Assembly (NCBI GenBank): GCA_964034945.1
Contig: OZ035961.1
Coordinates: 9,346,501-9,410,500 of the forward strand
Length of the DNA: 64,000 nt
Origin: Chrysopilus asiliformis
Lineage: Eukaryota; Arthropoda; Insecta; Diptera; Rhagionidae
Direction: 5' to 3'
This document shows, in pieces, positions 27,990-61,832 of this stretch. Position numbers and translations under genes: made by a program. Each line of letters begins with the position of its first letter. The first letter of the stretch is position 1. The notes beneath the pieces are model-generated. The model worked only from the letters and a program-made list of their open reading frames with translations, searched no databases and was not told the DNA's origin.

Positions 27990-30870
27990 GATTTTTAAAC
28001 AAAAAAAATTATGTTTTGTCAATACAGTGGAGCTACCAAATAACGAAATTTCTATATAACGAGAATTTTTTGTTCCTCTCTATTGACTTCATTATACTCC
28101 TCGGGATTTCTAAGAAAAGAAAAAAAGAGATTCTGCAAACATAAAAAATAAAAGACGCTCGGATATGTTCTACTATGAATCGATTTGTTTCAATTACCCC
28201 TAATTCTTTTGCCCTGATTTAATAAAGCACTCCATTATGGTACAAAAACGATTATTTAAAATATGTCTTTTAGGCGATATTTACATATTTATAATTACCT
28301 AAATAATTTGGATGGGTGCCCTATATCAAAATTATATTACAAAACGCATTTTTCTTACTAATAAAAATATCAAAAAATATTAAATTTTGTACAATTTTTT
28401 TTTTACAAAAGATTATCTTACAAATTTTGATTTTACCGAAAATTCATCAAAAATTTATCTCACGTTACATCAGATATTAATTTTATTTGAATCAAATAAT
28501 TATTTTGCTTTTTGTACAAACGACACACAAACACATATCGAAAATTTAAAAAAAAGTATATTTGAAAATTAGAGAGAATTTAAAATTGTGAAAATTAAAG
28601 TGTAACAAAAAAAACATTAAATTATATTAATTGTTAAAAATAATATTTGTATATATAAAAAAATTATTTATAATTATTGAATGTTGAATGGGTTAGACGG
28701 CACACACAAGGACACACACATATTTGGAAAAAAATATTATGTTAATTAATAAAAAATCAAATTCAAAAATCAAATCTTGAAAAAAACAGTATTCTATCGT
28801 TTTCAGTATAAGTTATTAATACCATTTCCATAGTTTCTTGTTCATTATTTAGCAAATTAATAAAAAAAAACTTCTTTTGTTGAAAAATTTGAGTTCTGTA
28901 AATATATTTTACCTCAAACATAAAAAAAGATTGTGTTTCAAATTATTTTTAAACTTTGTCGTTCTTGTTCTTTCAAAATGGCGTGCAATATTTTAAAAAC
29001 AAGTAGAAATTAATAATTAAATCTTATATAAAATTTAATTTCTCTCTTTTTTCGTTAAACTAAAAACAAATATATTTTCGTTAAAAAATAGACACACAAT
29101 TATATATAATATTGAGTTATGATATATTTACATATGAGATATTATGATTTGGAATAAAACAAAAGATTTTTCAAAGAAAAATTATTTTTTAGATGATAAG
29201 CGAATTAAAAGTAAAGAAAGAAATAAAAATAAAAAAAAGTTGAAAAAATCAAAATAAATTTGGAATGGATTTCAGGAGATTGGAAAAAATAATACTCGTA
29301 ATTTAATTTATTTATAAATCTAAAAAGTTAATTTTTTGATTTGATTTTTTTCATGATAAAAAATATAAGTAATAGTTTTTTGATTTAAAGCACACACAAT
29401 TAACATTAAAAAAATGTTTTCTGCAGGAAGATATTAAAATATTTACAAGATTTTTGTATTTTATTGAAAAAAAACTTAAAACTCAAAACATAAAACTGAT
29501 AAGAAAAAAATTTACAAAAAATATAAATGAATAAATAAATAGTTTTTTTTTTAGGAAAATCGCGTGAATATTTAATACAGTCAAGTATTTTATAACTTGT
29601 ATTATTTCCAAATTTTTGTTAAAAATGCTGGGACGGGTCGTTTTGCGTTTTATTATTAGTATTTGTTTTTTGTAATAATTTTTATTGTTTACGTACAAAG
29701 TTTTTATTCATAGTTGTTTTGTTTAAAATGATAAACGTACGAATATTGCAACATTTTTGGATAAAAATTTTCTTAGGCGATTCATAATTATCTTGTGCTG
29801 TAAAAATGGGGGCTTATTAGAATAGTTATGCTTTGAAATCTATTTCAAGTTAATGAATCTGATGTAAAATTGCTTTTGAATATCAAGAAACTTTTCCTCT
29901 ATGAAATTGTATCGTGAAATAGGGTGAGAACACCAGTTTTCAGCCGTTAACCAGGGTTTCCGGGGGAACTTTCGTTTTAATGGTAAGTTATTATTTTTAT
30001 GCAATTCACAATGAATTGTCCAAAAGCTCGTGTTTCACCCTATTTCCTATTTCAAAGATTACATTCTAAAGCCCTATAAAAAGTTGCCAATATATTTTAA
30101 TAGGGCTCCAGTAGTAAAATTTTTCTGTACAAATTTGAAATCATACTAAAAAAAATTAAACCTTGCAATTACAATAAACAAAATTAAATAAAAGGGTTTT
30201 AAAACTTTACAATTGGAGCCAATGTTCTAAACATTTTGATTATGGTTTTGATTTAGTAGTGATCGTTTTCTAACAAATGAACATTTCTGTGCTAACTTTT
30301 CTAACAAGGGAAGACGATGTTTTTTTTTTCTTGTTTTGATGCTAAAATTTTAATAATTTTGTTCATTTTAACTGACGAATTTGTCAAAATGACAACATGA
30401 AATGTAATAACAATTTTTCTTTATGCAGTTGTGAATCAGTTTACATAATTTTTTAGATTTTCTAAATGAAAATTTCAATAAAAAATAAATAAATATTGAA
30501 TAATTATAATAAAAAGATCATTCAAATGAAATTAAATTTGAATTGATATAAAATTTGACAAAATATCACAAATTAAATGTGAAAGAGGTGTGTTCGCAAA
30601 ATGATAATAAAAAAGAGATCTCTTTTGAAGACCATTTTGAAAATGAAACCAAAAAAATGAACAAATAAACAAATGATTAAAAATAAAAATGCTTTTTTAA
30701 CTGGTTGAAAAATTAATATGAACTTATAATGAATATCATTCATAAAAATATCATCATTATTATAACTTTAATTTTTTTTGATTGTAGATGTTTTTTTTTT
30801 TTGGTAGTTATTTTTTTTTTGTAAGAAATATGTAAAAAAAAAGTTTTGTTTAAATTTTAAAAAATGCTTA
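27990..30870. other. No gene seen; one possible pogo-type end at 28026
   Basis: ACAGTGGAGCTACCAAATAA and the following TATATAACGAGAA resemble one end of a pogo/Tigger-type element, but no partner end was found. The remainder up to the donor at 30872 is AT-rich intron. Confidence 0.4.
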
Positions 30871-30871
30871 C

Positions 30872-31110
30872 AATCATTGATATCATCATTGGATCGCATA
30901 ATATATTGATCCGATGAGGATAGTCTTGAATGCCCGTTCAAGTTGGGATGAGCTCCCCCCCTATGATCACTTTTTAATATGCTACGCATTGGCATTGCAG
31001 CCGGATTCGATTGATCCATGTACATACTGTCACCATCGCACTCACTTTCTTTATATTGTAGAACATTCTTATGTTTCTCATAGATAACCAGGCACCGATG
31101 ACATCCCCTA
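30872..31110 (-). CDS. Second visible exon of the DUF7042-7045-type gene, with a NAGNAG acceptor
   Basis: This exon continues the protein from the exon at 34140. It starts at a CAGTAG double acceptor, so the first base is 31110 or 31107; both keep the frame and give DRGCHRC or EGCHRC. The peptide carries GCHRCLVIYEKHKNVLQYKE and SECDGD, a conserved block of this family (paired Cys, H-x-NVLQYKE, then Cys). It then runs into a Ser/Asn/Asp-rich stretch containing MRSILKSDHRGG and SDQYIMRSNDDIND that looks like a linker. The exon ends at AATGATT|GTAAGC. The reading frame stays open past that donor for about 35 residues, but those residues are AT-rich intron translation. The upstream intron is 2.9 kb and the downstream one about 28 kb. 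The linker may be lineage-specific; the conserved first half is secure. Confidence 0.82.
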
Positions 31111-31619
31111 CTGTTGATATTCAAATCAAAGCGTCAAAATTTCCGGTCAAACGTCATCAAACGGAACGAATTTCGCAAAAAATTCGTTTAATCAAATTCC
31201 ATTTTGTGTTTGGATTTTATTTATTTTATTTTTTATTCCGGTGACAATTCGGATTGGTCAAATATCGATGGACGGATTTTGATGATCATATTTTATTGTT
31301 TTTTTTTTTTAAATAATTTTTGAGTTGTTTAGAAAGAGAAAACAAAAAGAAAAAACGCTTTTTAAATATATTTAAAAATTATAATCGAATTTCGAGTAAC
31401 TACTTAATTAAAATTATTGAATTTCTTAACTTTTAAATAATGTCTTAATAGTAACAATTCGTATTTTAATTAGCTTTGAATTAACTTAAAAGAATTTCAA
31501 ACTGAAAATGCTAGCAATTTGGTTTTAAAACACAGAAATTGATATATTCTATTAGTTTGTACAAAATTATTATTGTAGGAAAATCACATTAAGGAAATGG
31601 TGGGTCTTAATTTTTTTAT

Positions 31620-40360: not shown

Positions 40361-41530
40361 TTATTTGATAGGCTTATAAAATTCTGGTCGTAAAGATCGT
40401 AGTGCAGAGATGGTCTCATTTGTGACATTAACACCATCAAACTGAAAACTTTCCAGATTTTTAAGTTGTTTAATGACATTCACATCGATGTCCTTACATT
40501 TCAATTGATTTATATACAACCAAGACAATTTCGGCATATTTAAAAATATTTTAAAATCTAGATTTTCAACTGGATTATTACTAATGTCTAATGTTTCCAG
40601 GCTGCGAGCTTTGGTCAGATTTTTAAGGTTTGTGATATTATTTGATGCAATGTTCAAATGTTTGACATCTTGAATATTTCCAATTTCAATGTTCGTTAGT
40701 TGATTATCAAAAGCATGCAGTTCTGTCACATTTCCAACAAATCTTTTGACGCCACTCTTATAAAAGTCGACAGAATCACAATGTCCAATGAAAATTTCGT
40801 AAATTGGATTATGGGGACAAGAAAATTTCACCAAATTCAAATGTTTAACGATTTTTTCTCCAAAAACTTTGATTTTGTTTGAATTCAATGTGATTACTTT
40901 CAAATTTGTATTGTACTCAAATACCTTGTCATCAAAAATTTCAATTAAGTTGCTTGCCACGCTTAAACTCAATAAAGATCTGAGAGGTTTAAACACATTT
41001 TTTGGAAGTGCAGAAATTCTGTTGAATTCAAGATTTAAATCCAAAATGTTTTCCAATCCATCAAAACTGTGAGTGTGTATTTTATTTATTTGGTTGTTGC
41101 GAAGATTTAGTTTTTCCAATCTTGTATTGTATTTGAATGTCCATTCCGGTACTTCAATAATATTATTGAACGTGTTAGAATATATTATCAATTTTTCTGA
41201 GCTGTTATCCAATTTCTCTAGTTTTTCAATTTTACAACCTACTAATTTCAAACTTTTGAGTTCATAAAATACTGTAAAAATATTTTTGGGCACTGTTTTC
41301 ATAATCGAATCCGTTATATAAAGACTGAAAAAATCCTTTTTCTCAGAAATATCGAATTTCGATTCAGGATCAAGTTTTAATTTGTGGCAACTTAAATCAG
41401 CTAAATCAGCTATGTCGTGTAGATATGAATTTTCTTTGCAGTTTTGCCTTAAATTTATAATAACACCACATGAAAACTTGAATATGATTAGGAAATAAAA
41501 TATTTCTAAGGTTCGTCCTATCGAAATCAT
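40361..41530 (-). CDS. Secreted leucine-rich-repeat protein L1 (389 aa, single exon)
   Basis: An intact intronless gene. Residues 1-23 form a signal peptide (hydrophobic core 10-19). Cys31 and Cys48 form an N-terminal cap, and LRRs of the LxxLxLxxNxI type run from about residue 75 to 378, for example LEKLNLRNNQINKI and LETLDISNNPVENL. Other Cys are at 99, 238, 251 and 345; Cys251 is not in the other copies. Possible N-glycosylation sites occur at NVT, NIT, NLT and NET. There is no transmembrane segment, coiled coil or GPI-type tail, so the product is probably secreted. The start is the Met 12 bases after a conserved TCAGTC block shared by all four copies. An AATAAA lies about 50 bases past the stop (40306-40311). 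It resembles the LRR part of dipteran extracellular LRR proteins such as the mosquito LRIM/APL1 group but lacks their coiled coil. A recognition role is inference only. Confidence 0.9.
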   Translation of the reverse strand: MISIGRTLEIFYFLIIFKFSCGVIINLRQNCKENSYLHDIADLADLSCHKLKLDPESKFDISEKKDFFSLYITDSIMKTVPKNIFTVFYELKSLKLVGCKIEKLEKLDNSSEKLIIYSNTFNNIIEVPEWTFKYNTRLEKLNLRNNQINKIHTHSFDGLENILDLNLEFNRISALPKNVFKPLRSLLSLSVASNLIEIFDDKVFEYNTNLKVITLNSNKIKVFGEKIVKHLNLVKFSCPHNPIYEIFIGHCDSVDFYKSGVKRFVGNVTELHAFDNQLTNIEIGNIQDVKHLNIASNNITNLKNLTKARSLETLDISNNPVENLDFKIFLNMPKLSWLYINQLKCKDIDVNVIKQLKNLESFQFDGVNVTNETISALRSLRPEFYKPIK

Positions 41531-41850: not shown

Positions 41851-42510
41851 ATAAAAACTTGTGCGTAGATTAAATAAATAATGTGGTTTTTTGTTTTATG
41901 ATCAGATTTGGTTGTTTTTTGGGTAAATATCTATACAATTAGCATGATAGAATTATAATTTGAATATTACAGTTACTAGATTTTTCATTCTTTACATTCC
42001 TTACATTTTTTACTTTGATTTTAGTGTCCGTAAACAATTCTTTGTTTACACGTAAACTATGGCGTAATATTTGCACTACACTGCGTTTTATCTAAGATTT
42101 ATAATTGAATGAGTGGTAAAACTAATTATTATTATTATAAAGAAACAAAATGTTTCTGAGATTTCTTTTGTCTAATTAAAAAAAAATCGAATTTTAAGCT
42201 GTTTTTCGAGCTACATCCGTTTGCATAACCTTGACTATCGTTATATCCTTGACTTGATTACATTAATTTACTATTAATTTTTACTTACTATAAAATACAA
42301 AATATATTCAATTAGGTGTTAATATGTGTATAACAATGAAATGAAGTCAATAAAGCTCATATTTTTACTAGCGATGCCGTTATTTATATTTTTTAATTAT
42401 TTACTGAAAATGTGTGTTTTTGATACAATTACAAAAAACTTTTTGGAATAAAGCAATTTTATGTGAATAATGTTTTACTGAAATTAATCTCATTGTCAAA
42501 CTTATAGAAA

Positions 42511-43656
42511 CTAGGAAAAAAAAATTTGTAGTTGTAAAGACCGTAGTGCTGAGATGGTCTCATTTGTGACATTAACACCATAAAACTCAAAACTTTCCAG
42601 ATTTTTAAGTTGTTTAATGACACCCACATCGATGTCCTTACATTTTAATTGACTTATTCGCAACCTAGACAATTTCGGCATATTTAGAAATATTTTAAAA
42701 TCTAGATTTTCAATTGGATTATTACTAATGTCTAATGATTCCAAACTGCGAGCTTTGGTCAGATTTTTAAGATTTGTGATATTATTTGATCCAATGTACA
42801 AACGTTTGACGTCTTGAATATTTCCAATTTCAATGTTCGTTAGTTGATTACCCGGAGCTTGCAGTTCTGTCACATTTCCAACAAATCTTTTGACGCCACT
42901 CTTAAGAAAGTCGACAGAATCAGAATGTCCAATGAAAATTTCGTGAATTGAATTATAAGAACAAAAAAATTTCACCAAATTCAAATGTTTCACAATTTTT
43001 TGTCCAAAAACTTTGAACTTGTTTGAATTCAAATTTATCGCTTTCAAATTTGTATTGTACTCAAATACCTCGTCATCTAAAATTTCCATCAAATTTTCTG
43101 CTACGCTTAAACTTAACAAAGATGTCAGAGGGTTAAATATATTTTTTGGAAGTACAGAAATTCTGTTATTTCCAAGATGCAAATCCAAAATATTTTCCAG
43201 TCCATCAAAACTGTGAGTATGTATTTTATTTATTTTGTTGTTGTTAAGTTTTAGTTTCTCCAATCTTGTATTATATTTGAATGTCCATTCAGGTACTTCA
43301 ATAATATTATTGTACGTGTTAGAATATATTATCAATTTTTCTGAGCTTTTATCAAATTTTTCTAGTTTTTCAATTTTACAGTTTACTAATTTCAAACTTT
43401 TGAGTTCATAAAATACTGTAAAAATATTTTTGGGCACTGTTTTCATAATCGAATCCTTCATATAAATGCTGAAAAAATCCTTTTTCGCAGAAATATCGAA
43501 TTCCCATTCAGAAGAAAATTTTAATTTGTCACAATATAAATCAGCTTGATATGAATTTTCTCTGCAGTTTTGCCTTAAATTTATAATAACACCACATGAA
43601 AACTTGAATATGATTAGGAAATAAAATATTTTTAAGGTTCGTCCTATCGAAATCAT
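42511..43656 (-). CDS. Secreted leucine-rich-repeat protein L2 (381 aa, single exon)
   Basis: Paralogue of L1 with the same plan: a signal peptide (core YFLIIFKF), an N-terminal Cys pair in a region six residues shorter than in L1, about a dozen LRRs, and a C-terminus ending in SLQLQIFFS. The frame is open 31 codons further upstream, to a Met at 43749, but I start at 43656. That position is the Met shared by all four copies, it directly precedes a good signal peptide, and the TCAGTC initiator-like block at 43668-43673 lies upstream of it; the longer start would cover that block. L2 has the most distinct middle LRRs of the L1-L3 trio (KLNNNKINK and DLHLGNNRISVL). It is embedded in a unit (41861-44992) duplicated around L3. 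Function unknown; secretion is a firm inference. Confidence 0.9.
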   Translation of the reverse strand: MISIGRTLKIFYFLIIFKFSCGVIINLRQNCRENSYQADLYCDKLKFSSEWEFDISAKKDFFSIYMKDSIMKTVPKNIFTVFYELKSLKLVNCKIEKLEKFDKSSEKLIIYSNTYNNIIEVPEWTFKYNTRLEKLKLNNNKINKIHTHSFDGLENILDLHLGNNRISVLPKNIFNPLTSLLSLSVAENLMEILDDEVFEYNTNLKAINLNSNKFKVFGQKIVKHLNLVKFFCSYNSIHEIFIGHSDSVDFLKSGVKRFVGNVTELQAPGNQLTNIEIGNIQDVKRLYIGSNNITNLKNLTKARSLESLDISNNPIENLDFKIFLNMPKLSRLRISQLKCKDIDVGVIKQLKNLESFEFYGVNVTNETISALRSLQLQIFFS

Positions 43657-43952
43657 TTTGTAAGTCTGACTGATTTTAGATCTATATAAATTGCTGGGAT
43701 TTATTATCAGAATCCTTTTTATTTTTTCCATAAAGAGGGTAAGTTTCAATTAATCTTATTGTTAGTAATTTTAGTTTTATTAAGTTAAGCTTTAGGCTAA
43801 TCTGATACGCGTGTCAAAATGTCCATTATCATAATCATGAAACGTAGATGCGTAAAATTAAGGAGAAATATTAAATGTTACTTTAGATGGACAAAATGAC
43901 TGAATTAAAACGACTTATTGCAAAGCATAATTTTTATTTGACTCAATTAGAT
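43657..43952 (-). promoter_or_regulatory. Conserved upstream block of L2
   Basis: Homologous to the blocks before L1, L3 and L4. TCAGTC is at 43668-43673, 12 bases before the chosen ATG. A TATA-like TTTATATAGAT sits only about 18 bases before it, closer than a usual TATA-to-initiator spacing, so its role as a TATA box is doubtful. The distal end carries the shared AAACGACTTATTGCA motif and the following TTTTTATTTGACTCAATT. Confidence 0.6.
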
Positions 43953-44373
43953 AAAGTAAAACGTCCTATTACCGAACTGTAACCGATTGCCGGAAAATTC
44001 TTAAAAAACCGTTTAAAATAAGCTTCCCATTAATCAAAATTATCGAAAAATGTTTTTAATGCAATCCGTTATCATATTTTGTTAATTTAACCATCGAAAA
44101 TCAATATCACTAAATTGGGATTTTTGTTGAGAAGGGCTTTTTTGAATGCAAGTCACAAAACGCGCGGTTTTCTTAAGGTATGAGTTAAGAATTCGTATTT
44201 CTTGTTTTTAGTATTTCATTATGTAATAAAAAACACATTCTTTACTCAAATCCAATGTATTAAAAAAAAATCTCGAAAGTGCTTAAAATAATAAAAAAAA
44301 ACATTCTTACCGTAATAGGTTTGGTCGTCAAAATCAGTAAAACCTATTACCGGACCATATTTCGGTAATAAGG

Positions 44374-44992
44374 TTTTTTATACACGTATGGTGAAACCAA
44401 AGGGTATATTAACTTTGCCTTACCGTTTGTAATGCCAAGATCCCGTCATCACACACAAAAATGAATTACACCAGTGTGTTTAGAATGATAAAAATAATTA
44501 ATTTTTGCATGTCCGTCCGTCCGTCTGTCTGTCCGTCTGTCCGTCTGTCCGTCCGTCCGTCTGTCCGTCTATCCGTCCGTCCGTCCGTCCGTCCGTCTGT
44601 GGTGCGGATTGCGGGCGCACGGATTGAGCTATAGAATTGGAATTTTATGCAGATCGGTTTTTCGTAAAATGCGAAGCTAAGTTCGTTCATGGGCAAAAAT
44701 GGACCATTACGGGGGGGTACCCCCCATACAAACGAAAACGTTTTTTGTGAATATCTCAAAAACGGTGCATCTTATCAAAAAAGTCCAAGAACAAAAGTTA
44801 TTTAGGATATGATTCTACATAAAACTCCTATACATCAAAATCCGATTGGAATAAATTTTAAAAAATCTTATTGGAAAATTTGACTTCAAAGTGGAATTTT
44901 GGTACAACTGTTCGAATTTTGATACGAATATCACCATACGGGTTTTCAATAATTGCCACATTGGCAATTATAGCTTTTGTTATGTTTTGATT
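44374..44992. repeat. Interspersed repeat S1 with TCCG/TCTG microsatellite
   Basis: Starts TTTTTATACACGTATGG with a nearby AAAGGGTATATTAAC, passes a (TCCG/TCTG)n tract (44510-44600), GATTGAGCTATAGA, AAGTTCGTTCATGGGCA and AATATCTCAAAAACG, and ends CAATTATAGCTTTTGTTATG. It recurs at 50634, 23028 and 26812. A 97-codon minus frame here only translates the repeat. Confidence 0.7.
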
Positions 44993-46663: not shown

Positions 46664-46990
46664 GTGGTTAAGAACGAAGTGCAGAAAATGTTTTATTCGT
46701 GATTTTAATACTTAAAGAACTAAGATATTTTAGAACTAAAATATTTTATATCTACGTCTATGTTCTTCAACTTTAAGTCGTCTATTCGCAAAGAACATAA
46801 CTTTGCCAGGTTCATAAATATTTTGAAATCTAAAACGTTACTAGGATTAGAACTTTTATCCAATTCTTCAATGTTAAAAGCTTTAGTGAGATTCTTTAAA
46901 TCGATGATATTATTTGGTGTAAAGTGCAAAATTTTTAACTTTAGTAATTTTACCTCCACTGAATTAGTTTTAAAACGAATGGAATAAAAG
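46664..46990 (-). pseudogene. Relic of an L4-like LRR gene (C-terminal part)
   Basis: The minus strand encodes NNIIDLKNLTKAFNIEELD, then FKIFMNLAKLCSLRIDDLKL and KNIDVD, which align with the last LRRs of L4 (NNITDLKNLTKACNLKELDI and FQIFLNMPKLSMLRMDHLKL). The frame breaks after IDVD. Traces of the next LRR (KYFSS, then an end resembling TNKTFSALRS) follow in other frames, and upstream of about 46960 the similarity fades with stops. There is no signal peptide or promoter block. This is a decayed copy lying between the intact L2 and L3. Confidence 0.75.
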
Positions 46991-46999
46991 TCTTAATTT

Positions 47000-48000: not shown

Positions 48001-48571
48001 ATAAAAATTTGTGCGTAAATTAAATAAATAATGTGGTTTTTTGTTTTATGATCAAATTTGGTTGTTTTTTGGGTAAATATCTATACAATTAGCATAATAG
48101 AATTATAATTTGAATATTACAGTTACTAGATTTTACATTCTTTACATTCCTTACATTTTTTACTGTGATTTTAGTATACGTAAACGATTCATTGCTTGCA
48201 CGTAAAGTATGGCGTAAAATCTGCACTACACTGCGTTAAAACGCATTTATTTAATTGAATGAATGGAAAACCTAATTATTATTATAAAGAATTAAAAAAA
48301 ATGAATTTTGAGTTGTTTTTCGAGCTGCATCCGTTTGCACAACTTTGACTATCGTTATATCCTTGACTTGAGTACATTAATTTACTATTAATTTTTACTT
48401 ACTATAAAACACAAATTATATTGAATTAGGTGTTAACATGTGTATAACAATAAAGTGAAGTCAATAAAGTTCATATTTTTACTAGCGATGTCGTTATTTA
48501 TATTTTTTAATTATGTACTGAAAATGTGTGTTTGTTGATACATTTACAAAATGTTGTCAAACTTATACAAA

Positions 48572-49717
48572 CTAGGAAAAAGAAATTTGTAGTTGTAAAG
48601 ATCGTAGTGCAGAGATGGTCTCATTTGTCACATTAACACCATAAAAAGTAAAAAAACGCAGGTTTTTAAGTTGTTTAATGACATTCACATCGATGTCCTT
48701 ACAATTTAAGTGATTTATAGACAATCTAAACAATTTCGGCATATTTAGAAATATTTTAAAATCTAGATTTTCAACTGGATTATTACTAATGTCTAAATAT
48801 TCCAGGCTGCGAGCTTTGGTCAGATTTTTAAGGTTTGTGATATTATTTGATCCAATGTACAAACGTTTGACATCTTGAATATTTCCAATTTCAATGTTCG
48901 TTAATTGATTACGTAAAGCATACAGTTCTGTCACATTTCCAACAAATCTTTTGACGCCACTCTTAAGAAAGTCGACAGAATCAGAATGTCCAATGAAAAT
49001 TTCGTGAATTGAATTATAGGAACAAGAAAATTTCACCAAATTCAAATGATTCACGATTTTTTGTCCAAAAACTTTGATTTTGTTTGAATTCAAATTGATC
49101 GCTTTTAAATTTGTATTATACTGAAATACCTCGTCATCAAAAATTTCAATTAAGTTGTTTGCTACGCTTAAACTCAATAAAGATCTTAGAGGTTTAAACA
49201 CATTTTTTGGAAGTGCAGAAATTCTGTTGAATTCAAGATTCAAATCCAAAATATTTTCCAATCCATCAAAACTGTGAGTGTGTATTTTATTTATTTTGTT
49301 GTTGCGAAGATTTAGTTTTTCCAATCTTGTATTGTATTTGAATGCCCATTCAGGTACTTCAATAATATTATTGTGTGTGTTAGAATATATTATCAATTTT
49401 TCTGAACTGTTATCAAATTTTTCTAGTTTTTCAATATTACAGCTTACTAATTTCAAATTTTTGAGTTCATAAAATACTGTAAAAATATTTTTGGGCACTG
49501 TTTTCATAATCGAATCCGTTATATAAATACTGAAAAAATCCTTTTTCTCAGAAATATCGAATTCCGATTCAGGAGCAAATTTTAATTTCTCACAATATAA
49601 ATCAGCTACATCTGAATTTTCTCCGCAGTTTTGCCTTAAATTTATAATAACACCACATGAAAACTTCAATATGATTAGGAAATAAAATATTTTTAAGGTT
49701 CGTCCTATCGAAATCAT
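48572..49717 (-). CDS. Secreted leucine-rich-repeat protein L3 (381 aa, single exon)
   Basis: Paralogue of L1 and L2 with an intact frame, signal peptide, N-terminal Cys pair, LRR array and a SLQLQISFS end. As in L2 the frame extends 31 codons upstream to 49810, but the shared Met at 49717 is preferred for the same reasons. Its flanks, N-terminal cap and second half are L2-like (SCSYNSIHEIFIGHSDSVDF, KRLYIGSNN). Residues from about 55 to 200 are nearly identical to L1 (KLNLRNN, LEFNRISALPKNVFKPL). That mosaic points to gene conversion or unequal exchange with L1. The exposed positions of the last LRRs differ from both relatives (LFRLSINHLN, LRFFTFYGVN). It lies in a duplicated unit (48001-51487) that later took in a 309-base inverted-repeat element. 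Confidence 0.9.
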   Translation of the reverse strand: MISIGRTLKIFYFLIILKFSCGVIINLRQNCGENSDVADLYCEKLKFAPESEFDISEKKDFFSIYITDSIMKTVPKNIFTVFYELKNLKLVSCNIEKLEKFDNSSEKLIIYSNTHNNIIEVPEWAFKYNTRLEKLNLRNNKINKIHTHSFDGLENILDLNLEFNRISALPKNVFKPLRSLLSLSVANNLIEIFDDEVFQYNTNLKAINLNSNKIKVFGQKIVNHLNLVKFSCSYNSIHEIFIGHSDSVDFLKSGVKRFVGNVTELYALRNQLTNIEIGNIQDVKRLYIGSNNITNLKNLTKARSLEYLDISNNPVENLDFKIFLNMPKLFRLSINHLNCKDIDVNVIKQLKNLRFFTFYGVNVTNETISALRSLQLQISFS

Positions 49718-50013
49718 TTTGTAAGTCTGACTGATTTTAGATCTATATAAATTGCTGGGATGTATTATCAGAACCCTTTTTATTTTTCCCATAAATAGGG
49801 TAATTTTCAATCAATCTTATTGTTAGTAACTTTAGTTTTATTAAGTTAAGCTTTAGGCTAATCTGATACGCGTGTCAAAATGTCCATTATCATAATCATG
49901 AAACGTAGATGCGTAAAATTAAGGAGAAATATTAAATGCTACTTTAGATGGACAAAATGACTGAATTAAAACGACTTATTGCAAAGCATAATTTTTATTT
50001 GACTCAATTAGAT
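49718..50013 (-). promoter_or_regulatory. Conserved upstream block of L3
   Basis: Almost identical to the L2 block, as expected from the L2/L3 unit duplication. TCAGTC is at 49729-49734 and the same TTTATATAGAT precedes it. The distal AAACGACTTATTGCA motif is retained. Confidence 0.6.
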
Positions 50014-50432
50014 AAAGTAAAACGTCCTATTATCGAACTGTAACCGATTGCCGGAAAATTCTTAAAAAATCGTTTAAAATAAGCTTCTCATTAATCAAAA
50101 TGATCAAAAAATGTTTTTAACGCAATCTGTTACCATAATTTGTTAATTTAACCATCGAAAATCAATATCACTAAATTTGGGTTTTTGTTGAGAAGGGGTT
50201 TTTTGAATGCAAGTCACGAAACGTGCGGTTTTCTTAAGGTATGAGTTAAGAATTCGTATTTCTTGTTTTTAGTATTTCATTATGTTGTTCTAGTCAAATT
50301 TGTGTAAATTTAATTTTTTATGTAATAAAAAACACATTCTTAACTCAAATCCAATGTGTTAAAAAAAATCTCGAAAGTGCTTAAAATAATAAAAAAAAAA
50401 CATTCTTACCGTAATAGGTTTGGTCGTTAAAA

Positions 50433-50622
50433 TATATTGTATATTGAGTCATGTGACTCACCATCTTTTGAGAGACCAGTGCCAGAAATGTAGGAAGGTA
50501 ACACTGGCGAGAGAATGAGGAGTCTTGTAGTGAATCCGCTGAATAAAGACGCATTCTTATTACATTCGAGTTTTAATTTAATACTTTGTACTTAGCATTC
50601 CCCATTCCTAAGGCCTCTGACA
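50433..50622. mobile_element. Possible solo LTR or other small insertion
   Basis: Absent from the L2 unit, where it replaces about 30 bases. It starts TGTATATTGAG a few bases in and ends GGCCTCTGACA (TG...CA), and has an AATAAA near CATTCTTATTACATTCGAG, as in retrotransposon LTRs. No clear target duplication is present and the element has no second copy in the window, so the LTR call is weak; that it is an insertion is firmer. Confidence 0.4.
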
Positions 50623-50633
50623 GGTAATAAGGT

Positions 50634-51487
50634 TTTTTATACCCGTATGGTGAAACCAAAGGGTATATTAACTTTGCCTCACCGTTTGTAACACCAAGAT
50701 CCCATTATTACACACAAAAATGAAATACACCAGTGTGTTTAGAATGATAAAAATAATTATTTTCGCATGTTTGTCCGTCCGTCCATCTGTCCGTCCGTCT
50801 GTGGCGCGGATTACGGGCGCACGGATTGAGCTATAGACTTGGAATTTTATGCAGATCCGTTTTTCGTAAAATGCAAGGCTAAGTTCGTTCATGGGCAGAA
50901 ATGGACCATTAGAGGGGATATCCCCCATACGAACGAAATCCTTTTTTGCGAATATCTCAAAAACGTTGCATTTTATCAAAAAAGTGCAAGAACAAAAGTT
51001 ATTTAGAATGGCTGCGTTCAGACGAGGTTGAAACTGGTTGAAGTCAACCAAGTTACTCTGGGTGAAAAAACCTGCTTGCGTTCTCACGTAGTGTTTTTCA
51101 ACTTTTGCACTGCAGTATATTTACACATGCTATGCCAATGTGTGCATGTAGCAAGAAAAATTTTGTGAACCCCCACCATTGAACTCTATGTGTGTATGTG
51201 TTTTCAACCAAGTTCACCCGGCCTAGCCAGCAGGTGAATTCCCCGCATACCCCCGATAGCGTCTGGCCCGTAAAATCGAGTGGAAACTTGGTGAAGTCAA
51301 CCAGTTTCAACCTCGTCTGAACGATTCTACATAAAACTCCCATACATCAAAATCCGATTGGAATAAATTTTAAAAAATCTTTTTGGAAAGTTTGACTTCA
51401 AAGTGGAATTTTGGTACAATTTTGATACGAATATCACCATACGGGTCTCCAATGATTGCCAGATTGGCAATTATAGCTTTTGTTATG
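50634..51487. repeat. Interspersed repeat S1, L3-unit copy
   Basis: Duplicated along with L3. Shorter TCCG tract (50770-50800) than the 44-kb copy and interrupted by the 309-base MITE at 51015. Confidence 0.7.
51015..51323. mobile_element. 309-base inverted-repeat element (MITE) in the L3 unit
   Basis: The ends are CGTTCAGACGAGGTTGAAAC and its complement, inverted over at least 27 bases and extending imperfectly through GGTTGAAGTCAACC. It interrupts sequence that is continuous in the L2 unit (TTTAGGATATGATTCTAC), which gives the empty site. The few bases at the junction are altered, so no clean target duplication is visible. No coding capacity. Confidence 0.85.
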
Positions 51488-51557
51488 TTTTTATATTGTT
51501 TTTTGGGTCTACACGTTTACTATTCTCGAAATGAACAAAAATTTGATTTTATATTAA

Positions 51558-52166: not shown

Positions 52167-53336
52167 TTATAAAAATTTATATATAAGCTTTATTGGTAAG
52201 GTTTTCAATGCCAAAAGTGTTATATTTGGGATTTTAACACCCATAATACTGAAATATTTAAGATTTTTAAGCTTTTTCAAAACATCCACATCGATGACTT
52301 TCAACTTCAAATGATCCATTCGTAACATAGATAACTTTGGCATATTAAGAAATATTTGGAAATCCAAATCTTCAATTGGATTAGAACCGATATCTAACTC
52401 TTTAAGGTTGCAGGCCTTCGTGAGATTCTTTAAATCCGTGATATTATTTGAAGCAATTTGCAGAATTTCAACATCTTGAATATTTCCAATTTCAATATTG
52501 GTTAATTGATTAAAAGAAGCTTGAATTTCTTTTGCATTCCCGACAAAACGTTTAACACGATTTTCATAGAAGTTTATAGAACCGACACTTTTCACAAAAA
52601 TTTCGTTAATTTGGTTACTATAGCAATTAAATATCACTAAATTCAAATGTTTCACAATTTTTTGTCCAAGCATTTTTATTTTGTTGTGAGATAAAGTAAT
52701 TGCATTCAAATTTGCATTATGCTTAAAAATATCCTCATCTAACATTTCAATTAAGTTGTTGGATAGCCATAAAGATCTTAAAGATTGTAGAGGTTTGAAG
52801 ACATTTTTTGGTAGTACCGAAATTTGGTTGAGTCCAAGATTTAAATATAAAACACTCTCTAGTCCATCAAAACTGTAGGTATATATTTTCTTTATCTTAT
52901 TGTTGCCGAGACATAATTTTTCCAATCTCTTATTGTACTTAAATGTCCAATTAGGTATTTCAATGATATTGTTGTACGTGGTAGCAAATATTATTAATTT
53001 TTCTGCACTTTTATCAAGTTTTTGTAGAAATTCAATTTCACAGTTTTCTACTCTCAAATTTTTGAGTTCATAAAATACTGTAAAGATATTTTTAGGTAAT
53101 GTTTTCATAATCGAATTCACAATGTAAATACTAAAAAAATCTTTTTTCTCAGAAACGTCGAATTCCCAGTCAGTTGAAAACGTTAATTTATGACAATTTA
53201 AATCAGCCAGTATTGATATACCCGGCAGATATGAATTTTCTCTGCAGTTTTGCCTTAAATTTATAATAACACCACATGAAAACTTGAATATGATTAAGAA
53301 ATAAAATATTTCTAAGATTCGTCCTATCGAAATCAT
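52167..53336 (-). CDS. Secreted leucine-rich-repeat protein L4 (389 aa, single exon)
   Basis: The most diverged intact member of the cluster. The signal peptide is nearly identical to the other copies (MISIGRILEIFYFLIIFKF), and the N-terminal cap region is long as in L1 (ENSYLPGISILADLNC). The LRRs keep the same register but differ throughout (KLCLGNNKIKKIYTYSF, LRSLWLSNNLIEML). Two LRR-region cysteines of L1-L3 are replaced or moved: the late LKC is LKL here and the middle SC is NC. The C-terminus ends in LPIKLIYKFL. Two C-terminal relics in the window (46.7 and 53.7 kb) resemble L4 more than L1-L3, so an L4-like subfamily once had more members. No membrane anchor. The upstream block of about 300 bases is shared with L1-L3. 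Confidence 0.9.
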   Translation of the reverse strand: MISIGRILEIFYFLIIFKFSCGVIINLRQNCRENSYLPGISILADLNCHKLTFSTDWEFDVSEKKDFFSIYIVNSIMKTLPKNIFTVFYELKNLRVENCEIEFLQKLDKSAEKLIIFATTYNNIIEIPNWTFKYNKRLEKLCLGNNKIKKIYTYSFDGLESVLYLNLGLNQISVLPKNVFKPLQSLRSLWLSNNLIEMLDEDIFKHNANLNAITLSHNKIKMLGQKIVKHLNLVIFNCYSNQINEIFVKSVGSINFYENRVKRFVGNAKEIQASFNQLTNIEIGNIQDVEILQIASNNITDLKNLTKACNLKELDIGSNPIEDLDFQIFLNMPKLSMLRMDHLKLKVIDVDVLKKLKNLKYFSIMGVKIPNITLLALKTLPIKLIYKFL

Positions 53337-53632
53337 TTTGTAAGTCTGACTGATTTTTAAGTCTACATAAATTGCTGTGAACCGTTTTTATTTATTGCAT
53401 AAGGGAATAATTTTCAAATAATCTCATTTTCAGTAATTTTAGTTTTATAGTGTTACACTTGAAGCCAATCTGATACAAGTGCAAAAATTCCCATAATTTT
53501 AATCTTGAAACGTAGGTGCGTATAATGTTACTCGTAAAATTAATCGTCGTTACTCGTACTCGTCGAGAGACAAAATGATTGAATTAAAACGACTTATTGC
53601 ATAACATATTTTTTATTTGACTCATTAGATAC
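53337..53632 (-). promoter_or_regulatory. Conserved upstream block of L4
   Basis: A diverged copy of the upstream block. TCAGTC (53348-53353) and CTTACAAAATG are kept, as are the CAATCTGATAC motif and the distal AAACGACTTATTGCA motif. Conservation in the most diverged gene makes a regulatory role more likely than simple recent duplication. Confidence 0.55.
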
Positions 53633-53654
53633 TAACATTTTCAAATTTTTAGTT

Positions 53655-53815
53655 ACAAATATCTTTATAAATATTAAAATACAGGGGTTATTGATAAGGT
53701 TTTCAGTGCCAAAAGTGTTTTATTTGAGATTTTAACACCCTGAAAAGTGAGATATTTAAGGTTTTTAAGCTTTTTCAAATCATCCACATCGATTTCCAAT
53801 TACTTTCAATTTGTT
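53655..53815 (-). pseudogene. Relic of an L4-like LRR gene (last about 40 codons)
   Basis: Read on the minus strand, this stretch gives EIDVDDLKKLKNLKYLTFQG, then VKISNKTLLALKTLSITPVF and a stop. It matches the C-terminus of L4 (IDVDVLKKLKNLKYFSIMGV...TLLALKTL). Nothing of the gene body is left upstream beyond about 53830. It sits directly beyond the upstream block of L4, exactly where the next gene's 3' end would be expected in a head-to-tail array. It therefore marks a lost fifth unit at the right edge of the cluster. Confidence 0.72.
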
Positions 53816-54122: not shown

Positions 54123-54662
54123 GGGTCTTTTAACAAGGACATAACAATTTTGTATTTAAATAAAACACAGGGCTGAAATTTATTCCAGGTGTAGTGGACA
54201 TGTTACATTTAAGTATTAAATTCGATGTCGTTTATATGGCCACCGCAAGCATTGCACTGATTGATTCTTTGGAGCCATTTTTTCCACCACTCTTCCACAC
54301 ATATCGGCCGGAACGTTGGCAATTTCGCGTTCGATATTGCTCCTGAGCTCCTCTAACGTTGTTGGCTTGTTGGCACAAACCAACGACTTAACATAACCCC
54401 ATAAAAAGAAATCCAACGGCGTTAAATCGCATGAGCGAGGTGGCCATTCGACCGGACCATTTCTCGAGATTACACGATTGCGACCAGCGACTCAGAATTT
54501 CGGTAGTAAGTTTTAATAATTTCCAAACGTTGCTCGTACGTGAACTTCACCATGATGAAAACGTAAACCCTGACTGACGTTTTAGCATTGCCAGATGATA
54601 AAAAAAAGTTTTAGGGTGCGCTTTTATTAAAATACAAAATTTTATGTCCTTGTTGAAAGACC
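54123..54662 (-). mobile_element. Rosa-type Tc1/mariner derivative with an internal deletion, 540 bases
   Basis: The termini GGGTCTTTTAACAAGGACAT and ATGTCCTTGTTGAAAGACCC are inverted. On the minus strand an ATG at 54553 starts MVKFTYEQRLEIIKTYYRNS (transposase N-terminus). After SLVAIV there is a stop, and the sequence resumes in the catalytic end (WPPRSCDLTPLDFFLWGYVK and an EELRSNIEREIANVP tail). The middle of the transposase, with the first two catalytic Asp, is deleted; the last (LTPLDFFLWG) remains. Length and structure fit a MITE born by internal deletion. Confidence 0.85.
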
Positions 54663-55820: not shown

Positions 55821-56118
55821 AGGGTCTTTCAACAAGGACATAACAATTTTGTATTTTAATAAAGACGCACCCTTAAACTTTTTTTACAATCTGGCAATGC
55901 TAAAACATCAGTCAAGGTTTACATTTTTACCATGGTGAAGTTCACGAACGAGCAACGTTTGGAAATTATTAAAACTTACTACAGAAATTCTGAGTCGGTG
56001 GTCGCAATCGTGTAATCTCGAGAAATGGTCCGGTCGAATGGCCACCTCGCTCATGCGATTTAACGCCGTTGGATTTCTTATTATGGGGTTATGTTAAGTC
56101 GTTGGTTTATGCCAACAG
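55821..56118 (+). mobile_element. Truncated second copy of the rosa-type derivative
   Basis: It starts with the same terminus (GGGTCTTTCAACAAGGACAT) and runs through the same ATG, MVKFTNEQRLEIIKTYYRNS, the same deletion junction (TCGCAATCGTGTAATCTCGA) and DFLLWGYVKSLVYAN. Similarity ends abruptly at about 56118, so the 3' half and second terminus are missing. Opposite orientation to the 54-kb copy. Confidence 0.8.
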
Positions 56119-56119
56119 G

Positions 56120-57320
56120 CCACCCCGTCAAATTGACCTACTTCTGAAATATTTCATGGAAATAATGAACAAGGAATGTAGGCTCTCATCTTAAACCAAT
56201 GAAAATCGAAGAATTTCCCAATAAAACTTTTTAACGAAACATTAAAAAACCGTCTTTCATTCCCGAAATTTCAAAAATAGAACGTAAAGTTGTAATCCGA
56301 TTAAAATTTTTCTTCTCAAGTTGCTTACAAAACTTTGACACAAAATACCATAATAACTTTTTTTATACCTTGGAAAATTCATATCGATAATTTCATGAAT
56401 TTATTGTCGAAATTTAGTTTTCTTCAGTTTTATTGTATAGTGTTAGTAAAGATTGAGATTTTATAAACCCTTTGCCATTGAAAGGTTTTTTTAAAAGCCG
56501 ATTAATTACAGTCGAGTTAATTATGGTGAAGAACGTTTTATGTTGGTTAAACATTTTAAATTTTATGATCCAGTCGCCATTAAATGATTTGTAAAGTACT
56601 TCAAAAAAGTTTAAATATTTAATGTCTATTTCGGTATTTAAGGGGGTCTGCCTACCTGCAAACTTTGGAGAAATCGAATTTCTTTTGCATGTTCTTACAG
56701 TACAACATATTTATTTGACAAAATATTAAGTTGTTCGAATGAAAATTGCCCAAGCTATGTGACTTGTGACACGCGATTTTCTCGAAACAACGTTCCCAAA
56801 ATCGATGCCGTTGGTAACTCAATAATCACTCAATAATCACTCAACCGATTTCTTTAAAATTTTCGCATTAGTTTATCTAGTCCTCTAAAATAATTCACCA
56901 AGAAGTAAAATTCGCCAAGAAAACAGCGCCACAGTCGGTATTTTTTTACATCATCCCTAGAGTGGAATGGACTTTTAGAAAAATTGAACATTGTTGAAAT
57001 ATGTGTGGCTTAGATGAAAATACTTCAAAAAATTGCACCACAGGAGAAAATTCACCAAAAAAATGCGCCTCAGGCGAAAATAAAAACGTACAACAATGCA
57101 CAGGTCAAAATCGACTTTCAAAATTGTCAAATCTGGGTTAAAATTTGACAGCTCTACAAATTCATATTCTTTTTAGTGTTTATTTTAAGTATTTCTTGCC
57201 CCTCGTGGCATTCGGTCCTGTGTTACAACTGCTGCGTTTTCCGGTTACGGAGAAACAACGACAGACGAATAAACTGTTTAATGTGAACATAAAAATAACT
57301 AAATGTATATTTCCGCGTAA
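56120..57320. other. No gene seen
   Basis: Nothing recognised beyond short chance ORFs. A patch at 56880-57080 repeats ATTCACCAA(A/G)AA-type phrases. Confidence 0.45.
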
Positions 57321-59166: not shown

Positions 59167-59415
59167 AGAGAAAAATTTTCTTCTAATTGGCCTCTAGCAG
59201 GCGCGCGTTCGCCTGCATGTGGGCAAGTAAAACTGAGTTGACCTGAGGTCGGAGAAATTCTGAAATTAAGCCACCAGCAGGTGAAGTAGGGCATTGGGAG
59301 CTGCACGAGTTGACCTTATATAGGTTAACTCTGACCGCTAGCTGGCTTACAGAAACCTCTGTAAGGTCAGAGTTAACCTGACAAAAAGTTGACCTGGACA
59401 TTTTTCTGAGTGTAC
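59167..59415. mobile_element. Second copy of the 278-base element, left end degraded
   Basis: Closely similar to 61555-61832 from TAATTGGCCTC to CTGAGTGTAC. About 30 bases after the left terminus are missing. Same orientation, 2.4 kb away. Confidence 0.75.
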
Positions 59416-61554: not shown

Positions 61555-61832
61555 GTACACTCAGAAAAATGGAGGCTAACTCGACGACCTACATACGGCG
61601 TAATTGGCCTCGGGCAGGCGCGCGTTCGCCTGCATGTGGGCAAGAAAAACTGAGTTGACCTGTGGTCGGAGAAATTCTGAAATTAAGCCACCGGCAGGTG
61701 AAGTAGGGCATTGCGAGCTGCACGAGTTGACCTTAGATAGGTTAACTCTGACCGCTAGCTGGCTTAAAGAAACCTCTGTAAGGTCAGAGTTAACCTGACA
61801 AAAAGTTGACCTGGACATTTTGCTGAGTGTAC
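61555..61832. mobile_element. 278-base inverted-repeat element, complete copy
   Basis: The ends GTACACTCAGAAAAATG and CATTTTGCTGAGTGTAC are inverted. The body is strongly similar to 59167-59415 (GGCGCGCGTTCGCCTGCATG, AGGTCAGAGTTAACCTGACA). The open frames across it in both copies are a property of the repeat and not a gene. Confidence 0.75.

What the first reader, a model, noticed from the sequence alone, without database searches (positions are those of the whole stretch)
40436..40720. LRR paralogues differ mainly at the exposed positions of the LxxLxLxxN strands
Comparing L1, L2 and L3 in their last five repeats, the scaffold residues are constant while the x positions change: TELHAFDN / TELQAPGN / TELYALRN; KHLNIASN / KRLYIGSN / KRLYIGSN; LSWLYINQL / LSRLRISQL / LFRLSINHL; LESFQFDG / LESFEFYG / LRFFTFYG. 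In known LRR proteins these x residues line the concave, ligand-binding face. Concentrated change there between very young duplicates suggests diversifying selection for binding different partners, as in immune or recognition receptors. The role is inference.
Basis: partly seen in the sequence, partly recalled or inferred. Interest (0 to 1): 0.78.

Follow-up and report, generated by a model that had tools for sequence, protein, structure and literature searches.

The report
LRR paralogues diversify on binding face
A row of four neighbouring genes for leucine-rich-repeat proteins, probably secreted and probably from an insect, has changed mainly on the surface that such proteins usually bind with, which suggests selection for binding different partners, although the partner and any immune role are unproven.

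Summary
L1-L4 are four intronless tandem LRR genes, probably secreted. Among L1-L3, 32 of 70 concave-face x positions of LxxLxLxxN vary, against 17 of 159 other LRR and 7 of 84 scaffold positions; in the last five repeats 16 of 25 against 2 of 57. Odds peak when the mask is in register, and a confident AF2 model places strands on these triplets. Whole-gene dN/dS is below 1. At concave codons it is 1.96 (p=0.003), and about 3.6 in the last five repeats. Limits: three close sequences; N-terminal concave codons look neutral; free multinucleotide mutation removes significance (p=0.07-0.34), while fixed 2-5% keeps it. Concave replacement divergence exceeds flank divergence for L2-L3 only; for the L1 pairs it equals it, except L1-L3 in the last five repeats. 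L1 and L3 share a conversion-like segment. The pattern resembles plant resistance-gene clusters and differs from mosquito APL1, whose differences lie on both faces. An LRIM-like origin is only a lead. Immune function was not tested.

The parts
40361..41530 (-). L1: LRR protein gene, 389 aa, single ORF, 14 LRR units placed by motif
   Evidence: ORF; Pfam LRR_8 6e-24; AF2 mean pLDDT 86.5 with 45-row alignment
42511..43656 (-). L2: paralogue, 381 aa from the ATG that all four copies share (the listed TTG start at 43749 is a mechanical extension)
48572..49717 (-). L3: paralogue, 381 aa from the shared ATG (listed TTG start at 49810 is a mechanical extension)
52167..53336 (-). L4: older paralogue, 389 aa, 65% identical to L1
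40391..40729 (-). L1 repeats R10-R14 (codons 268-380): the most diversified part of the concave face
   Evidence: 16/25 concave x codons variable vs 2/57 others; omega 3.57 vs 0.10
42535..42873 (-). L2 repeats R10-R14
   Evidence: alignment
48596..48934 (-). L3 repeats R10-R14
   Evidence: alignment
40934..41131 (-). L1 codons 134-199 (R4-R6): conversion-like segment shared with L3
   Evidence: 25 of 30 two-state sites group L1 with L3, 5 group L2 with L3, 0 group L1 with L2; shuffle P=0.0002
49139..49336 (-). L3 counterpart of the conversion-like segment
41465..41530 (-). L1 signal-peptide-like N-terminus (residues 1-22)
   Evidence: most hydrophobic 19-residue window starts at residue 7 (KD 1.97); none above 1.04 after residue 40; no signal-peptide program was run
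41851..44991 (.). L2 with its flanks: one copy of a roughly 3-kb segmental duplication
   Evidence: three aligned pieces to 48001-51494: 88% over 2524 columns, 80% over 445, 91% over 181
48001..51494 (.). L3 with its flanks: the other copy
46685..46934 (-). degenerate fragment of an L4-like copy between L2 and L3
   Evidence: 71% identity to 52214-52468 over 255 columns; open frame 46720-46992 resembles R11-R13 by eye
53631..53793 (-). fragment like the 3' end region of L4 (52133-52295), lying upstream of L4
   Evidence: 85% identity over 163 bases

Best explanation
L1-L4 are tandem duplicates of a secreted LRR recognition-type protein. The LRR scaffold is held by purifying selection. [quoted passage not shown] Segmental duplication and gene conversion supply and reshuffle the copies. 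Shown: tandem array, predicted LRR fold, concentration of change on concave strands, conversion-like mosaic. Supported but not proven: dN/dS above 1 at those codons. Inferred: secretion, ligand binding by that face, and a role in recognising non-self (immune) rather than another fast-evolving partner.
For: Concave x 32/70 variable vs 17/159 other LRR codons; odds peak in register. AF2 model with block pLDDT about 90-99 over residues 71-380; predicted strands cover the x3-L4-x5 triplet of each of the 14 repeats as placed, exactly in 8. Fixed-sites omega: concave 1.96 vs rest 0.38, p=0.003 against 1; 3.57 vs 0.10 in codons 268-380 with own branch lengths, p=0.0005; 0 of 150 bootstraps in each case. 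M1a vs M2a 2dL 35.5. L2-L3 concave replacement divergence 0.185 (R10-R14 0.293) vs 122/1761=0.069 in their non-coding flanks; L1-L3 in R10-R14 0.346 vs 0.193 (p=0.02). Five of 70 concave codons differ at all three bases between L2 and L3, 0 of 311 other codons. Mosaic segment L1/L3. The same combination (positive selection only at x of xxLxLxx, plus conversion in a tandem cluster) is reported for coffee SH3 resistance genes (PMC3113787, passages).
Against: Three close sequences from one genome: no orthologues or polymorphism; codon model is my own script, not checked against a standard program. R10-R14 was chosen after seeing the data. Concave codons of 67-250 look neutral (omega 1.04, p=0.89). 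With L4 the all-concave omega is 1.30, p=0.11. With freely fitted multinucleotide mutation p is 0.07-0.34, and likelihood rises steadily with the MNM fraction (-2224.0 at 0, -2205.5 at 5%, -2200.2 at 8% doubles + 2% triples). Dropping the eight concave three-hit codons plus codon 361 gives 1.24, p=0.41. Concave replacement divergence of L1-L2 (0.209) and L1-L3 (0.191) over all repeats is no higher than in L1's 5' flank (0.180, 0.193; 161 bases; p 0.58 and 1), and the L2-L3 excess may partly reflect older, converted coding sequence, as L2-L3 dS (0.166) also exceeds the flanks. No ligand, expression or immune evidence.
Confidence: 0.52

Rival explanations
1. Relaxed constraint: the concave x residues carry little function in these copies and drift at about the neutral rate, while the scaffold is kept for folding.
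For: Concave codons of R1-R8 give omega 1.0-1.3, not different from 1; the all-concave 4-sequence value is 1.30, p=0.11; free MNM fits do not reject 1; concave replacement divergence of the L1 pairs equals that of L1's 5' flank over all repeats.
Against: R10-R14 exceed 1 significantly in each fit without a freely fitted MNM rate; L2-L3 concave replacement divergence is 2.7 times that of the flanks, 4.2 times in R10-R14; L1-L3 in R10-R14 exceeds the flank (p=0.02). The other LRR residues, many of them exposed on the convex side, barely change (2/57 in R10-R14).
Confidence: 0.3
2. Mutational or conversion artefact: clustered multi-base events, or short tracts copied from unsampled diverged paralogues, made the multi-hit codons.
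For: 8 of 9 three-hit codons among L1-L3 are concave and carry much of the signal; models with more MNM fit better; the 3' flank has one three-base and one six-base mismatch run (3-hit triplets 1.7 against 0.25 expected); conversion is evident elsewhere in the genes.
Against: The other four L2/L3 flank stretches (1191 aligned bases, 59 mismatches) show one two-base run and no longer one. Three-hit codons fall almost only on concave codons, mostly with untouched neighbours, which a position-blind mutational or block-copy process would not do. With MNM fixed at 2% and 5% omega stays above 1 at p 0.004 and 0.009 over the whole gene, 0.025 and 0.0496 over the LRR domain, and 0.0008 and 0.0018 in R10-R14.
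Confidence: 0.12
3. Diversifying selection is real but not immune: the proteins bind a fast-evolving self partner (for example reproductive, matrix or neuronal).
For: Nothing in the sequence says immune; structure hits include adhesion and hormone-receptor LRRs at similar Z (LGR4, LINGO-1, LRIG1).
Against: Tandem secreted LRR genes with conversion are known in mosquitoes as immune (APL1; passages), and APL1C is among the closest folds (rank 10); neither is decisive.
Confidence: 0.25

Closest known systems
Mosquito LRIM/APL1 proteins (Anopheles LRIM1, APL1A-C; Long and Coil-less LRIMs)
   Different: No C-CC cap, no terminal LxxLxLxxNx[WF]xC, no room for a coiled coil (7 to 9 residues after the last repeat), no intron. 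Differences between APL1A-C are spread over concave and convex faces (PMC4361550, passage); here they concentrate on the concave one.
Plant NBS-LRR resistance-gene clusters (coffee SH3-CNL)
   Same: Tandem cluster, gene conversion, positive selection only at the x residues of xxLxLxx (PMC3113787, passages).
   Different: Plant receptors with CC and NBS domains; here a bare LRR, probably secreted, probably arthropod.
Variable lymphocyte receptors of jawless fish
   Same: LRR proteins whose diversity lies on the concave strands (recalled).
   Different: VLRs are assembled somatically from cassettes (recalled); here diversity is among germline genes, and no cassette array was looked for.

Membership tests
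LRIM family (Waterhouse et al. 2010 definition) | Signal peptide | tested here: inconclusive
   Hydrophobic N-terminus by Kyte-Doolittle, peak window starting at residue 7 in all four; no dedicated predictor available
LRIM family (Waterhouse et al. 2010 definition) | 6 to 14 LRRs | tested here: met
   14 units R1-R14 placed by motif; LRR_8 in all four
LRIM family (Waterhouse et al. 2010 definition) | Leading C-C motif | tested here: inconclusive
   A Cys pair before the repeats is conserved (C31 and C48 in L1/L4, C31 and C42 in L2/L3); its spacing was not compared with that of LRIMs
LRIM family (Waterhouse et al. 2010 definition) | Last LRR LxxLxLxxNx[WF]xC and C-CC double-cysteine cap | tested here: not met
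   After R8 the Cys are: L1 251 and 345; L2 and L3 339 (column 345); L4 309; no double Cys and none after the last repeat
LRIM family (Waterhouse et al. 2010 definition) | C-terminal coiled coil (except Coil-less subfamily) | tested here: not met
   7 to 9 residues remain after the last repeat
LRIM family (Waterhouse et al. 2010 definition) | Short 19-aa LRR-g followed by LRR-h with Ala as third Leu | tested here: inconclusive
   R8 18 aa, R9 17 aa, then R10 (21 aa) with invariant Ala273: like it but not 19 aa. Control is weak: in 121 other LRR proteins 0 of 24 motifs after a 15-20 aa repeat have Ala, about 1 expected from 83 of 1633 overall, and the same pattern catches only L1 of our four
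LRR tandem clusters under diversifying selection at xxLxLxx | Ka/Ks above 1 confined to the x residues | tested here: inconclusive
   omega 1.96 vs 0.38 and 3.57 vs 0.10 in R10-R14; not robust to free MNM and not above flank divergence for the L1 pairs over all repeats
LRR tandem clusters under diversifying selection at xxLxLxx | Role in pathogen recognition | not testable with these tools
   No expression, infection or binding data

The most novel reading that the evidence does not exclude
A non-mosquito insect has an LRIM-like, cap-less and coil-less secreted LRR array in which the bare concave face itself is the direct, rapidly diversifying ligand-binding surface: a germline repertoire that works by the concave face, unlike APL1, where changes lie on both faces and the LRR is thought not to be the main contact.
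Probability: 0.22. Interest if true: 0.7.

Novelty: new member of a known kind. Interest (0 to 1): 0.42.

Why it matters
If the selection holds up, these four small single-domain genes would be a compact natural series of an animal LRR scaffold with exchanged binding residues. That would allow a direct test of whether insects use the concave LRR face for germline-encoded recognition of changing targets. It would also show by contrast why the APL1 genes, a well-studied insect LRR cluster, changed on both faces.

Tried and rejected
Homologues: three protein searches found no close relative. The best-scoring whole-protein hit is 34% identical over 40% of L1 (119 of 7987 scored candidates passed; candidates were capped). 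Residues 20-125 of L3 gave none of 78 candidates at E<=0.001. Residues 225-389 of L4 gave 2 of 346, both with LRR domains. So orthologue-based site tests were not possible. The 45-row alignment used for the second model mixes repeat registers and was not used for selection tests.

Organism: not named by any tool. The exon-like ORF at 30768-31124 matches Pfam DUF7044, which I recall as an arthropod family, and mariner-like fragments lie at 54216-54491 and 55994-56194 (label recalled; no Pfam match at E<=0.1). Rfam gave 0 matches at gathering threshold.

Data left out: L4 from the 3-sequence tests; columns gapped in L2/L3 were treated as missing.

Full report
WHAT IS THERE. The finding lies in L1, the first of four intronless minus-strand ORFs (L1 40361-41530, L2 42511-43656, L3 48572-49717, L4 52167-53336). 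L2 and L3 are 83% and 86% identical to L1, L4 65%. All four match Pfam LRR_8 above the curated cut-off. The proteins start with a hydrophobic stretch and have no second one (peak 1.95-2.24 at residue 7; at most 1.31 after residue 40), and carry 4 to 6 N-glycosylation sequons, so they are probably secreted (inference; no signal-peptide program was run). Fourteen repeat units R1-R14 can be placed by LxxLxLxxN. R8 and R9 are unusually short (18 and 17 residues), and R10 has Ala in place of the third Leu in all four copies.

OBSERVATION. The quoted strings are correct, and 40436-40720 is codons 271-365 of L1. I defined concave positions from the motif alone as x2, x3, x5, x7 and x8 (70 codons). 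Among L1-L3, 32/70 vary, against 17/159 other LRR codons and 7/84 scaffold codons. In R10-R14 it is 16/25 against 2/57, scaffold 1/30. Sliding the mask by up to 11 residues either way gives odds 7.7 in register; shifts +2, +3 and +5, at which the mask overlaps itself in part, still give 2.8-3.1 (p 0.0004-0.001), the rest at most 1.6. Per repeat, R13 varies at 5 of 5 and R14 at 4 of 5 concave positions, R10 and R11 at 3 of 5, R12 at 1 of 5.

STRUCTURE. With four rows AF2 gave mean pLDDT 66. With 45 rows (4 own + 41 of the 119 homologues) it gave 86.5 and pTM 0.82, with ten-residue blocks from 71 to 380 at 90-99. Predicted strands at 140-142, 164-166, 188-190, 212-214, 291-293, 313-315, 337-339 and 361-363 are exactly x3-L4-x5 of R4-R7 and R11-R14; longer strands cover that triplet in the other six repeats. 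That these strands line the concave face is established LRR architecture, not a new result.

SELECTION. Whole-gene NG86 dN/dS among L1-L3 is 0.41-0.71, dS 0.11-0.18. I wrote a GY94/F3x4 model (not checked against a standard program) for the three close copies; with three sequences the unrooted tree is a star, so conversion cannot give a wrong topology. Concave omega is 1.96 vs 0.38 for the rest (2dL 8.93, p=0.0028 against 1). In a three-class fit R10-R14 is 3.70 and the other concave codons 1.29. Codons 268-380 alone, with own branch lengths, give 3.57 vs 0.10 (p=0.0005); codons 67-250 give 1.04 (p=0.89). With L4: all concave 1.30 (p=0.11), R10-R14 2.13 (p=0.0005) (one topology tried). None of 150 bootstrap replicates under omega=1 reached the observed value, for R10-R14 or for all. 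M2a beats M1a (2dL 35.5; a class of 5% of sites at omega 17, the lowest class at its bound); 12 sites exceed posterior 0.7, 9 of them concave; 8 reach 0.9, 6 concave.

WHAT WEAKENS IT. Many concave codons differ at two or three bases. If double and triple mutations are fitted freely, concave omega is 1.51 (p=0.095) for all codons, 1.28 (p=0.34) for the LRR domain and 2.07 (p=0.073) for R10-R14. Those fits imply 13% (all codons) to 21% (R10-R14) of events being multinucleotide, and the likelihood favours such rates. The L2/L3 flanks show less of it: four of five stretches (1191 aligned bases, 59 mismatches) have a single two-base run; the 3' flank (570 bases, 63 mismatches) has seven doubles, one triple and one six-base run (two-hit triplets 9.0 against 6.1 expected, three-hit 1.7 against 0.25). 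With the fraction fixed at 2% or 5%, p is 0.004 and 0.009 for all codons, 0.025 and 0.0496 for the LRR domain, and 0.0008 and 0.0018 for R10-R14; at 8% doubles plus 2% triples it is 0.032, 0.14 and 0.006. Leaving out codons 360-363 keeps 2.75 (p=0.011) in R10-R14 and 1.68 (p=0.028) for all; leaving out the eight concave three-hit codons and codon 361 gives 1.24, p=0.41.

FLANK YARDSTICK. L2-L3 replacement divergence is 0.185 per site at concave codons (0.293 in R10-R14, 0.127 in R1-R9) against 0.069 in their flanks (p 2e-6, 2e-7, 0.04); against the more diverged 3' flank alone (0.111) R1-R9 is not higher (p=0.62). For L1 the only flank that I aligned is 161 bases long and differs by 0.180-0.193: L1-L2 concave 0.209 (p=0.58; R10-R14 0.237, p=0.45) and L1-L3 concave 0.191 (p=1; R10-R14 0.346, p=0.02). 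L2-L3 coding sequence may be older than its flanks because of conversion (dS 0.166), which would inflate the first comparison. So this yardstick supports selection in R10-R14 for two of three pairs and not for the whole face.

HISTORY. L2 and L3 lie in a segmental duplication with flanks (41851-44991 / 48001-51494). Codons 134-199 of L1 and L3 are nearly alike while L2 differs: 25 of 30 two-state sites, shuffle P=0.0002; site patterns run together more than chance (73 runs, 92.6 expected, P=0.0006). A second stretch, codons 313-369, groups L1 with L2 (15 of 25, P=0.011), and no stretch stands out for L2 with L3 (P=0.59). The first is the mark of conversion between L1 and L3; the second overlaps the fast codons and may be L3's own changes. 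A degenerate L4-like fragment (46685-46934) and a second fragment (53631-53793) show births and deaths of copies.

VERDICT. A real, non-random and structurally coherent pattern; diversifying selection on the C-terminal part of the concave face is the best reading (0.52), with relaxed constraint the main rival (0.30). Immune recognition is plausible and untested.

Noticed in passing
window 46685-46934 (-): Degenerate LRR fragment, 71% identical to the 3' part of L4, between L2 and L3: relic of a further copy.
   Followed up: partly
window 53631-53793: 163-base fragment 85% like the 3' end region of L4 (52133-52295), upstream of L4.
   Followed up: partly
L1 codons 381-389 vs L2/L3: The C-terminal tail after the last repeat differs almost completely between L1 and L2/L3 (7 of 8 aligned codons variable), with a different stop position.
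   Followed up: no
L1 codons 37-42: Six-codon insertion/deletion between the two conserved N-terminal cysteines: present in L1 and L4, absent in L2 and L3.
   Followed up: no
window 54216-54491 (-) and 55994-56194 (+): Two fragments in opposite orientation resembling a mariner-type transposase (label recalled; no Pfam match at E<=0.1).
   Followed up: partly
window 30768-31124 (-): Exon-like ORF with Pfam DUF7044 (E 6e-8), which I recall as an arthropod family.
   Followed up: partly
window 59184-59415 and 61601-61832: 232-base direct repeat, 96% identical, 2.4 kb apart, each with an open frame on the minus strand.
   Followed up: no
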